Source: Telluribacter humicola (lineage in GTDB: Bacteria > Bacteroidota > Bacteroidia > Cytophagales > Spirosomataceae). Taken from it: DNA of 64,000 nucleotides. The stretch is taken from the NCBI RefSeq assembly GCF_017355935.1, contig NZ_JAFIQT010000002.1:372001-436000 (forward strand), read 5' to 3'. The notes under the pieces were generated by a model. That model worked only from the letters and a program-made list of their open reading frames with translations, ran no database searches and was not told the origin of the DNA. The translations under genes and the position numbers were made by a program. This document shows positions 9,467 through 56,101 of the stretch, piece by piece. How positions within the stretch are numbered: the first letter of the stretch is position 1; every line of letters begins with the position of its first letter.

Positions 9467-10612
9467 TTACAGCTCATCAATGTTCACCCAGCACCGCTTT
9501 TCCCAGCTCTCGATGCCTTTTTCGGCCAGCTGTACTCCCTTAGCACCTTCTTTCAGTCCCCATGGGAACGGAGTGTCTTTTACCAGGTGCTTCAGGAACA
9601 GCTCCCACTGCGCTTTGAAGGCGTTGTCGAAAGGCTCCTGCTGAGGTACTTTAGACCAGCCTTCGTAGAAATTGATCGGCTGCTCGATGTCGGGATTCCA
9701 TACGGGCTTTGGTGTGTTGCCGTAGTGCTGGATGTAGCACTCGCGCAGACCGGCTACGGCCGATCCCTTGGTACCATCTACCTGTAGGGTAAGCAGGTCG
9801 TCGCGGCGTACACGTACGGTCCAGGACGAGTTGAAGTGGGCAATCACGTCACCTTCCAATTCGAAAGTAGCGTAGCAGGCGTCATCGGCGGTACACTTGT
9901 AGGGGTTACCCTTTTCGTCAATACGCTCTTCAATATGAGTAGCACCCAGACAGGATACCGCCTTCACATTACCGAACAGGTGGTCCAGTACGTAACGCCA
10001 GTGGCAAAGCATATCTACAATGATACCTCCGTCATCTTCCTTGCGGTAGTTCCAGGATGGGCGCTGAGCAGGTACACTATGTCCTTCAAATACCCAGTAG
10101 CCAAACTCACCCCGTACCGACAGGATCTTTCCGAAGAAATCATTTTCCATCAATCTTTTAAGCTTGAGCATGCCGGGCAGCCACAGTTTATCCTGTACTA
10201 CCCCGTGCTTCAGACCGGCAGCTTCGGCGAGTTCATACAGCTCCAGAGCCTCCTCGGTAGTGGTACCGGTTGGTTTTTCGCAGTAGATATGCTTACCCGC
10301 CTGGATGGCTTTTTTGATAGCGGGTGCACGGCGACCAGTTACCTGGGCATCAAAGTATACCTGGTAGTTAGGATCAGCCAGAACGGATTCCAGATCGGTT
10401 GTATACTTCTGTACCCCGGAGCGCTTGCAAAGTTCCTGCAGCTTGGCTTCGTTACGACCTACCAGAATAGGATCGGGCATGATGACTTCGTCGTCAGAAA
10501 TCTTAACACCACCCTGCGCGATGATTTCCTTAATAGAGCGCAACAGGTGCTGGTTAGTACCCATACGGCCGGTAACGCCGTTCATGATAATACCAATGGT
10601 ATGCTGAGTCAT
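9467..10612 (-). CDS. Gfo/Idh/MocA family oxidoreductase
   Basis: A 381-residue NAD(P)-dependent sugar or cyclitol dehydrogenase. The N-terminal Rossmann motif is GIIMNGVTGRMGTN, the conserved EKP motif is YCEKPTG (near residue 117), and the C-terminal alpha/beta domain carries the GGIIVDMLCHWRYVLDHLFG segment with the catalytic-site histidine. No Tat or Sec signal is seen, so it is cytoplasmic. The stop codon is 2 bp from the next gene's start, showing tight coupling to the SDR. Upstream is a sugar isomerase. A pathway of isomerisation and redox steps on a released sugar is inferred. Confidence 0.87.
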   Translation of the reverse strand: MTQHTIGIIMNGVTGRMGTNQHLLRSIKEIIAQGGVKISDDEVIMPDPILVGRNEAKLQELCKRSGVQKYTTDLESVLADPNYQVYFDAQVTGRRAPAIKKAIQAGKHIYCEKPTGTTTEEALELYELAEAAGLKHGVVQDKLWLPGMLKLKRLMENDFFGKILSVRGEFGYWVFEGHSVPAQRPSWNYRKEDDGGIIVDMLCHWRYVLDHLFGNVKAVSCLGATHIEERIDEKGNPYKCTADDACYATFELEGDVIAHFNSSWTVRVRRDDLLTLQVDGTKGSAVAGLRECYIQHYGNTPKPVWNPDIEQPINFYEGWSKVPQQEPFDNAFKAQWELFLKHLVKDTPFPWGLKEGAKGVQLAEKGIESWEKRCWVNIDEL

Positions 10613-53683: not shown

Positions 53684-55417
53684 ATGCAAGAGATACTTAC
53701 CAATCAAAAGTTGCTAGATCTGGTCCGTGAACGTGACCATCTGCTAACATTCGATCCGAACAAACTTTATCCTATACTTTTTCGCCCATGCCGGGTCAGA
53801 GTGCTGCTTGTTGCAGATGGTGGCCTCGACTTTTCGATTGGAGGATTTGGTCTTCGGGCATTTGTAGAAAGTCTGCTTGATATGCCGGGGTATCACGTAA
53901 AGTTTGATATTACGCTCGCACACATTCATGCTCGCTCAGGAGGACAAATGATGGATCCGGACACCCGGATAACAAGACGAATCTCCCAGTTTAAATTTGA
54001 CAATCCCGAGCACTTTGGTCCTGACAAGTACGATCAGGTGTGGCTGTTTGGAATAGATACAATTTATCGTCAGCGCAATGGATATCCAACGGACCGACTA
54101 GGTGACAAAGAACTGGCAGCCATCACGCAGTTCATGAATGGTGGCGGTGGACTGTTTGCAACGGGTGACCACGGGTCGCTGGGCGCTTGTCTGGGAGGTT
54201 CAGTACCACGAGCCCGATCTATGCGGTTGTGGGGACCTGCCGGGGATGCCGTAGGTAGTGAAGTGAGCATGACACATTCACGTCGTAACGATACCAACCG
54301 TCAGGGTAGTAGTCCGGGAAGTCAGTTTAATGACCAGTCCGATGATGTTCCCCAACCAATAGAGCCTAAGATGTACCATCGGCGGATGGGCATCTTCAGA
54401 TTCTCGTATCCACATCCGCTCCTTTGTAGCCCTGGTGGAGTAATTCGGGTAATGCCCGACCACCCACACGAGGGGGAATGTGTGGCTCCGGCTAATCCGA
54501 ACCAGCAAATTAACTATGTTAATCCGCCCGTTCCCGAATATCCTCCGGCGGCTGGGGGTGGGACTCGTCCCCTACCGGAAATAATCTCCACCAGTAGCGT
54601 ACCTGCCGGTAATACAGCATCGGCGACAAAAGATCCGACAGTAGCACAGACATTCGGAGGTATATGTGCTTACGATGGACATCTGGCTAAAGTCGGTAGG
54701 GTAGTGACGGACCCCACCTGGCACCACTTCGTGAATATTAACCTGATTGGTGATCAGGGAGCACCTTTCGGTGATCCCAAGCGGTTAGGTTATCTGGCTT
54801 CTCCCGCTGGTATGGCCCATCTGGAACAGATTAAAACGTATTTCCGAAATATAGCGGTATGGTTATCCCGGCCATCGCAGATCGTGTGTATGCAACGTCG
54901 GCTTAAGTGGGGAGTGATCTGGACTGACCGGGTGATGGAAGCCGTAATGACCAAGGCGGACATTCCACTGGCCAAACTTGATACCCGTAACCTGCTGGAT
55001 ATTGGCCGTCACGCCCGCGATGTTCTTGGCCAGTACGTAGGTGCATGCCAGGCACGAAGAATCATCCTGTACGAGATTGAACGTGTCTTCCCTAAACCAT
55101 GGCTGGATCTTGTAGATCCCTGGCTACCACTGCCGCCGCGCGGGCCCGAGCCTGGTCCTGATCCCGTACCGTGGCTGGATCCTGAACTGGTACTGGACAT
55201 AGCTTTGGGGGGAGCGTTGGCAGCTTTGCGGGAAGAATTTCCGGATCCGGACCCACAACGGCTGGAAGAGATTGAAAAGTCAATGGATAAGGTGTCAGCA
55301 CGGGGGGTGGAAGTCGCAGTAGGTTTTGCACTGGAATCGTTTGGTACTACAGTCAATCGCTATACCAAGTTGTTTGAGAGCTTTAAGGGAGGACGGACCA
55401 ACTCTGAGGCAGAATAA
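53684..55417 (+). CDS. Large hypothetical protein with ThuA/GATase-like N-terminal fold
   Basis: A 577-residue protein that I cannot assign to a named family. There is no signal peptide or membrane helix. The N-terminal half shows a ThuA or class I amidotransferase-like order: VLLVADGG (40-47), YDQVWLFGID (117-125), then GGGGLFATGDHGSLGACLG (153-171), and a later GRVVTDPTWHHFVNINL. The central section has many Asn, Pro and Gly. A proline-rich linker (PLPPRGPEPGPDP) precedes a C-terminal helical part. The start at 53684 follows the structured element. Nothing nearby suggests function. Confidence 0.65.
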   Translation: MQEILTNQKLLDLVRERDHLLTFDPNKLYPILFRPCRVRVLLVADGGLDFSIGGFGLRAFVESLLDMPGYHVKFDITLAHIHARSGGQMMDPDTRITRRISQFKFDNPEHFGPDKYDQVWLFGIDTIYRQRNGYPTDRLGDKELAAITQFMNGGGGLFATGDHGSLGACLGGSVPRARSMRLWGPAGDAVGSEVSMTHSRRNDTNRQGSSPGSQFNDQSDDVPQPIEPKMYHRRMGIFRFSYPHPLLCSPGGVIRVMPDHPHEGECVAPANPNQQINYVNPPVPEYPPAAGGGTRPLPEIISTSSVPAGNTASATKDPTVAQTFGGICAYDGHLAKVGRVVTDPTWHHFVNINLIGDQGAPFGDPKRLGYLASPAGMAHLEQIKTYFRNIAVWLSRPSQIVCMQRRLKWGVIWTDRVMEAVMTKADIPLAKLDTRNLLDIGRHARDVLGQYVGACQARRIILYEIERVFPKPWLDLVDPWLPLPPRGPEPGPDPVPWLDPELVLDIALGGALAALREEFPDPDPQRLEEIEKSMDKVSARGVEVAVGFALESFGTTVNRYTKLFESFKGGRTNSEAE

Positions 55418-55786: not shown

Positions 55787-56101
55787 ATGGGATTTGACCA
55801 GTACCACGAACCACCTCATGAGCTATCGGAAGAAACCCGCACCTTTGCCCGCATGGTACGTTCCGTGATCGAGGAGGCCGAAGCCATTGACTGGTATGAG
55901 CAACGCATATCGGTTGAGAAAGACGATCAGGCCAAACGCATTATGCAGAATGCACAGAAGGAAGAGTTCAAACACTTTGCTATGGATCTGGAATTTCTGC
56001 TCAGGAAAAAGCCCAAGTGGCGACAGATTATGCAGATGATCCTTTTTCAGGAAGGTGACATTGTCGATCTGGGAGAAAAAGCCGAAGAAGAGGCAGAGTA
56101 G
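55787..56101 (+). CDS. Encapsulated-ferritin-like (EncFtn) protein, orphan
   Basis: A 104-residue two-helix protein of the EncFtn ferritin-like family, which forms decamers with iron-binding ferroxidase centres. Comparison with the Rhodospirillum rubrum protein, by memory, puts its ferroxidase residues Glu32, Glu62 and His65 at Glu30, Glu60 and His63 here (EEAEAIDWYEQR and EEFKHFAMD), and the conserved Trp at Trp36. It has no C-terminal encapsulin-targeting peptide; the tail is acidic (LGEKAEEEAE). No encapsulin shell gene lies in the window. An intact two-helix core makes it likely functional. Confidence 0.82.
   Translation: MGFDQYHEPPHELSEETRTFARMVRSVIEEAEAIDWYEQRISVEKDDQAKRIMQNAQKEEFKHFAMDLEFLLRKKPKWRQIMQMILFQEGDIVDLGEKAEEEAE

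What the first reader, a model, noticed from the sequence alone, without database searches (positions are those of the whole stretch)
55787..56101. Stand-alone EncFtn-type ferritin without encapsulin
The protein aligns to encapsulated ferritins with the ferroxidase residues in place (Glu30, Glu60, His63, and Trp36 nearby) by a constant two-residue offset, yet lacks a targeting peptide and has no encapsulin gene near. EncFtn is normally cargo of an encapsulin shell, because it cannot store iron by itself. A free form implies a different iron-handling or oxidative-defence role.
Basis: partly seen in the sequence, partly recalled or inferred. Interest (0 to 1): 0.6.

Follow-up and report, generated by a model that had tools for sequence, protein, structure and literature searches.

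The report
Shell-less relative of encapsulin ferritin
This gene makes a small iron-oxidising protein whose best-known relatives work locked inside a virus-like protein shell, but here, as in most of its close relatives across about ten bacterial phyla, there is neither a shell gene nor a shell address tag, so it most likely works free in the cell; such free forms were noticed before but hardly studied.

Summary
ORF 55787-56101 (+, 104 aa) is an EncFtn-like protein (Pfam PF22277, 1.6e-24). Ferroxidase and entry-site residues E29, E30, E32, Y37, E60, H63 align gaplessly, at +2 offset, with R. rubrum EncFtn. It has no targeting peptide (TP), and the genome (100% complete) has no family-1 encapsulin. 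The AlphaFold monomer fits 5da5/3k6c at 1.1-1.3 Å.

The free form is not exceptional. Of the EncFtn genes examined, all 10 with a TP have an encapsulin gene directly adjacent. Of 98 genomes whose copy lacks a TP, 93 have no encapsulin; the other five have DyP-peroxidase encapsulins whose cargo carries its own TP. None of 395 Bacteroidia genomes has a family-1 encapsulin. The window protein lies in a clade separate (100/100) from the R. rubrum/Nitrosomonas type, scattered over about ten phyla, under strong purifying selection, and in some Nitrobacteraceae on conjugative heavy-metal-efflux plasmids. A few actinomycete members of the same clade keep TP and encapsulin.

Best explanation: a soluble, probably decameric ferroxidase for metal/oxidative stress beside the cell's own ferritin and Dps; that role is inferred. 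'Non-EncFtn' proteins were named in 2016, so this is a variant of a known kind.

The parts
55787..56101 (+). CDS of the shell-less EncFtn-like protein (104 aa)
55871..55882 (+). codons of E29, E30 and E32: ferroxidase glutamate (E30) and entry-site glutamates (E29, E32), equal to Rru E32, E31, E34
   Evidence: alignment; E29 and E30 invariant, E32 at least 90%
55892..55897 (+). codons of W36 and Y37 (Rru W38, Y39)
55964..55975 (+). codons of E60-x-x-H63, the ExxH metal-binding motif (Rru E62, H65)
   Evidence: both invariant
56060..56098 (+). C-terminal acidic tail IVDLGEKAEEEAE, predicted helix, in the place where cargo EncFtns carry linker plus targeting peptide; no TP motif

Best explanation
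The gene encodes a shell-less EncFtn. Two long helices pair across a two-fold axis to form a symmetric di-iron ferroxidase centre, and the subunits probably assemble into the annular decamer of the relatives. It is not encapsulin cargo: it works free in the cytosol, oxidising Fe(II) (and perhaps binding other divalent metals) to blunt metal and oxidative stress. Since this architecture has no closed cavity, the Fe(III) must be taken up elsewhere, most simply by the cell's own ferritin and Dps. Shown: family, active-site residues, monomer fold (model), absence of TP and encapsulin, and the TP-encapsulin rule across relatives. Inferred: decamer, activity, stress role, hand-off. My confidence that it is not encapsulin cargo is about 0.95; that it is an active ferroxidase about 0.8; the figure below is for the whole statement.
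For: Family, residues, fold. No encapsulin in the own genome nor in 395 Bacteroidia genomes. All 10 TP-bearing relatives have an adjacent same-strand encapsulin. Of 98 genomes whose copy visibly lacks a TP, 93 have none and 5 have an encapsulin that sits beside a DyP-like protein with its own TP. Own genome has a 178-aa ferritin and a Dps-like gene. Metal context in relatives: directly behind a cadA/zntA-type P-type ATPase in czc efflux islands of Nitrobacteraceae including conjugative plasmids, divergent from the iron exporter gene mbfA on a B. betae plasmid, next to NRAMP in Ferruginibacter and in an NRAMP-CDF-P-type ATPase cluster in L077/L088. dN/dS 0.008-0.016. R. rubrum EncFtn alone is an active ferroxidase but does not mineralise iron (PMC5012862).
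Against: No activity or oligomer data for any member of this clade. In the window and in most non-alphaproteobacterial relatives the neighbours are not metal or stress genes and are not conserved. Metal-transporter enrichment outside Alphaproteobacteria is weak: within-locus permutation p 0.014 within three genes, 0.04 within two, 0.67 within one; Fisher p 0.13. R. rubrum EncFtn without shell left insoluble iron precipitates, a poor product for a free enzyme.
Confidence: 0.55

Rival explanations
1. It is a divalent-metal buffer or chaperone (Zn, Cd, Co, Mn) rather than an iron oxidase: the two-fold glutamate/histidine site holds metal and feeds efflux pumps or buffers the cytosol.
For: In Nitrobacteraceae the gene lies directly behind a cadmium/zinc-type P-type ATPase in czc islands and on conjugative plasmids; NRAMP and CDF neighbours elsewhere.
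Against: The full set of ferroxidase residues including the tyrosine is kept under strong constraint, and the metal-island link is mostly one lineage in the tree.
Confidence: 0.25
2. It is encapsulated after all, by a shell the searches cannot see or through an unrecognised short targeting sequence, as the 2024 review left open for s-FLPs.
For: The review (PMC11202242) notes that short EncFtns could fit inside a shell and lists a putative TP. Some close relatives are cargo.
Against: No family-1 encapsulin in the own genome, in 395 Bacteroidia, in 25 of 25 genomes with alphaproteobacterial short EncFtns, or in 70 of 75 window-clade genomes; the five exceptions are DyP systems. The family-2 search (PF19307) was also empty but its control was silent.
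Confidence: 0.05
3. It is a peroxide- or oxygen-scavenging di-iron enzyme, or an oxidase of another substrate, with iron as cofactor rather than substrate.
For: Half-ferritin di-iron sites are versatile across the ferritin-like superfamily (general knowledge); the genome already has ferritin and Dps for iron.
Against: Active-site residues equal those of an assayed ferroxidase; no partner reductase or substrate gene is conserved next to it.
Confidence: 0.12
4. It is a non-functional leftover of a lost encapsulin operon.
For: One relative (L069, Nafulsella) has an in-frame stop at codon 5, and the gene is absent from nearly all of its own family.
Against: Window ORF intact; dN/dS 0.008-0.016 between near pairs, 40 invariant columns over about ten phyla.
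Confidence: 0.03

Closest known systems
Encapsulated ferritins EncFtn of Rhodospirillum rubrum (Rru_A0973, 5da5) and Haliangium ochraceum (5n5f)
   Same: Half-ferritin fold (rmsd 1.2-1.3 Å, 36-42% identity) and all ferroxidase and entry-site residues at constant offset
   Different: They carry a C-terminal targeting peptide and their gene lies beside an encapsulin gene; the window protein has neither and falls in a separate clade (100/100)
Short EncFtn (s-FLP) NE0167 of Nitrosomonas europaea (3k6c), of the kind called 'Non-EncFtn' by He et al. 2016
   Same: Short, no TP, same fold (rmsd 1.1 Å); alphaproteobacterial short relatives, 25 of 25 genomes, have no encapsulin
   Different: About 40% identical; NE0167 groups on the R. 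rubrum side of the tree and ends LFTNKPIAHE, not with the acidic EKAEE tail. I could not read which proteins He et al. put in their Non-EncFtn group, so it may include this clade.
EncFtn-encapsulin operons of actinomycete MAGs (L054, L131, L133-L135)
   Same: Same clade as the window protein; L054 is 74% identical to it
   Different: They keep a TP (SLGIGSLR type; diverged to LGIGG in L134/L135) and an adjacent encapsulin gene

Membership tests
EncFtn-like family (PF22277) | Match to the family profile above its curated cut-off | tested here: met
   85.9 bits vs cut-off 27, profile 1-85 of 85
EncFtn-like family (PF22277) | Ferroxidase residues E32, E62, H65 (Rru numbering) with Y39 and entry-site E31/E34 | tested here: met
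   Ungapped alignment to 5da5; invariant or at least 90% in 37 relatives
EncFtn-like family (PF22277) | Two-long-helix half-ferritin fold | tested here: met
   AlphaFold2 pLDDT 92.7, helices 15-43 and 47-73; Foldseek TM by target about 0.9 to 5da5, 5n5f, 3k6c
EncFtn-like family (PF22277) | Annular decamer with metal-dependent dimer interface | not testable with these tools
   Only a monomer model could be made
EncFtn-like family (PF22277) | Ferroxidase activity | not testable with these tools
   Needs an Fe(II) oxidation assay
Encapsulated ferritin (encapsulin cargo, TIGR04535) | C-terminal targeting peptide | tested here: not met
   No LxIGSL-type motif in residues 86-104
Encapsulated ferritin (encapsulin cargo, TIGR04535) | Family-1 encapsulin gene adjacent, or at least in the genome | tested here: not met
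   PF04454 absent from the 100%-complete genome; TIGR04535 score 89.8 under its cut-off of 125
Short EncFtn / Non-EncFtn | EncFtn fold with neither TP nor encapsulin | tested here: met
NE0167-type s-FLP subgroup | Groups with NE0167 in a tree | tested here: not met
   Separate clades, 100/100 support

The most novel reading that the evidence does not exclude
Free EncFtn is the common and perhaps older form: a horizontally spread cytosolic metal oxidase or metal-stress protein, recruited into encapsulins several times by gain of a targeting peptide and an adjacent shell gene (or released from them several times by losing both), so that encapsulated ferritin is the special case.
Probability: 0.3. 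Interest if true: 0.65.

Novelty: new variant of a known kind. Interest (0 to 1): 0.4.

Why it matters
EncFtn is taught as an enzyme that needs its encapsulin shell, and a 2024 review left open whether short EncFtns are encapsulated by an unknown signal. The genome counts here answer that in the negative for both clades sampled: targeting peptide and adjacent encapsulin go together without exception in the genes examined, and most members have neither. If free EncFtns are active, cells use this open ring without a mineral cage, which makes the question of where the Fe(III) goes directly testable, and the link to metal-efflux plasmids suggests a metal-stress role.

Tried and rejected
Encapsulin hidden elsewhere in the genome: rejected. 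Family-2 shell (PF19307): no match, but that search's control was silent, so inconclusive. Phage origin: no match in phage records. Conserved operon partner across phyla: none; neighbours outside Nitrobacteraceae are lineage-specific (biotin synthase, riboflavin synthase, GntP, Mur ligase and so on). Simple near/far count of metal transporters outside Alphaproteobacteria: Fisher p 0.13, not significant; a within-locus permutation gave p 0.014 for three genes and 0.67 for one, so I treat the link as suggestive only. Foreign base composition: gene GC 0.487 vs window 0.492, GC3 0.56 within the local range, so composition gives no sign of recent transfer. Literature: no paper in the held library uses 'EncFtn-like' and none found describes function of free EncFtns. 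Chance or pseudogene: rejected. The direction of TP gain or loss stays open: the tree needs four changes, at least three on well-supported branches, but it is not rooted independently.

Full report
Observation. The ORF at 55787-56101 (+) is a complete 104-aa gene. It matches Pfam PF22277 EncFtn-like over the full profile at 1.6e-24 and R. rubrum EncFtn (5da5) at 2.6e-17 without a gap, window residue n lying on Rru n+2. E29, E30, E32, W36, Y37, E60 and H63 fall on Rru E31, E32, E34, W38, Y39, E62 and H65. He et al. 2016 assayed mutants of Rru E32, E62 and H65 and describe Glu31/Glu34 as the entry site. The AlphaFold2 monomer (pLDDT 92.7) superposes on 5da5 and 5n5f at 1.2-1.3 Å and on NE0167 (3k6c) at 1.1 Å. 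The C-terminus has no targeting peptide. The own genome, 6.56 Mb and 100% complete, has no PF04454 encapsulin, but has a 178-aa ferritin and a Dps-like gene.

Relatives. A scan of GTDB species genomes found 253 relatives; the best 80, at 68-81% identity, come from Bacteroidota, Pseudomonadota, Gemmatimonadota, Verrucomicrobiota, Acidobacteriota, Armatimonadota, Planctomycetota, Chloroflexota and Thermomicrobiota, Actinomycetota and one Doudnabacteria MAG. Within the window's own GTDB family only 1 of 222 genomes has it, and in the class 4 of 395 match PF22277 above its cut-off. The tree mixes phyla. This pattern points to horizontal transfer, although some placements may be misbinned MAG contigs, and base composition shows no recent import. 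Seven plasmid records carry a relative, four of them typed conjugative. Forty columns are invariant in 37 sequences, and dN/dS is 0.016 (L015/L022) and 0.008 (L050/L061), so the protein is under strong constraint.

Is it cargo? I used the presence of a TP to predict the presence of an encapsulin. Ten genomes hold an EncFtn with a TP: five in the R. rubrum clade and five actinomycete MAGs in the window's own clade. All ten have a PF04454 gene directly next to it on the same strand; in L054 the two ORFs share one base of the stop/start junction region (EncFtn 10001-10384, encapsulin from 10384). On the other side stand 75 genomes with a window-clade copy without TP, the own genome included, and 25 alphaproteobacterial genomes with a short EncFtn of the R. 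rubrum/NE0167 clade. In two of the 75 (L033, L078) the gene runs to the contig end, so TP absence was seen in 98. Of these 98, 93 have no encapsulin. The five that do (L017, L019, L087, L068, L062) have it beside a DyP-like protein ending in GSLGIGSLK or GSLDIGSLK, that is, beside another cargo. No family-1 encapsulin was found in 395 Bacteroidia genomes. MAGs in these sets may be incomplete, which can hide encapsulins, but not in such a one-sided way.

Where it sits in the family. A careful tree of 67 proteins separates the window clade from the clade of R. rubrum, H. ochraceum and NE0167 with 100/100 support. Both clades contain TP-bearing and TP-less members; the label needs four changes, at least three on well-supported branches. 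One case, L111, is TP-less inside the TP-bearing group and its genome has no encapsulin. The sampled NE0167-type proteins (82% identical to NE0167 at best) come from genomes without encapsulin, which speaks against the putative NE0167-type targeting sequence listed in the 2024 review.

Context. In the window the gene stands alone: upstream, 370 bp away, a 577-aa ORF without Pfam match; downstream, convergent, a cupin gene. In Nitrobacteraceae and related MAGs it sits in heavy-metal islands, often directly behind a cadA/zntA-type P-type ATPase, with CzcA-type RND and CDF genes, also on plasmids. On the Bradyrhizobium betae plasmid it is divergent from mbfA, annotated iron exporter. In Ferruginibacter (L055, L064) an NRAMP gene is directly upstream; L077 and L088 share a P-type ATPase, CDF, NRAMP, EncFtn cluster; L039 has a P-type ATPase two genes downstream. 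Elsewhere neighbours are unrelated housekeeping genes. The recurrence is suggestive, not strong.

How it most likely works. From homology: a two-fold di-iron site that oxidises Fe(II), in a ring of ten subunits. R. rubrum EncFtn alone oxidises iron but binds only 10-15 iron ions per decamer and leaves precipitate, and needs its shell to store iron (PMC5012862). A free member therefore cannot be a store in the ferritin sense; the likeliest roles are Fe(II) detoxification with the product passed to the cell's ferritin or Dps, or buffering of divalent metals. The first is my best explanation (0.55), the second the main rival (0.25). Activity, decamer and phenotype were not testable here.

Known or new. 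The existence of EncFtn-like proteins without encapsulin was reported in 2016 ('Non-EncFtn') and the NE0167 type is in the review as s-FLP. What seems not to have been set out, in the papers I could search, is this second clade, the exact TP-encapsulin agreement, and the link to mobile metal-efflux islands. I rate it a new variant of a known kind.

Noticed in passing
L054:10001-11187: Actinomycete MAG with a window-clade EncFtn that keeps a targeting peptide (TLGIGSLR) and runs straight into an encapsulin gene; four more MAG genomes (L131, L133, L134, L135) are alike. Natural cargo counterparts of the free form.
   Followed up: yes
L134 and L135, C-termini: Targeting peptides diverged to SLGIGGLK and SLGIGGKR beside an encapsulin gene; unusual TP variants.
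   Followed up: partly
L111 (G1002): EncFtn without TP nested inside the R. rubrum-type TP group, in a genome without encapsulin: a likely recent release from the shell.
   Followed up: partly
L091:8854-10315 (Bradyrhizobium betae plasmid NZ_CP044544.1): Free EncFtn gene divergent from mbfA (iron exporter) on a conjugative plasmid.
   Followed up: no
L004 and L008 (genome G331): One Bacteroidia genome holds two different free EncFtn genes.
   Followed up: no
L069:10001-10303 (Nafulsella turpanensis): Relative with an in-frame stop at codon 5 and a short deletion; probably a decaying copy or one using a later start.
   Followed up: partly
L027, L046 (Chthoniobacterales MAGs): Entry-site glutamate E32 replaced by Q, and W36 by R in L046, with the ferroxidase E30, E60, H63 kept.
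   Followed up: no
window 53684-55417 (+): 577-aa ORF upstream of the EncFtn gene with no Pfam match at 1e-5.
   Followed up: partly
L093-L095, L128, L129: DyP-peroxidase encapsulin pairs in Afipia and related genomes that also carry the free EncFtn elsewhere.
   Followed up: yes
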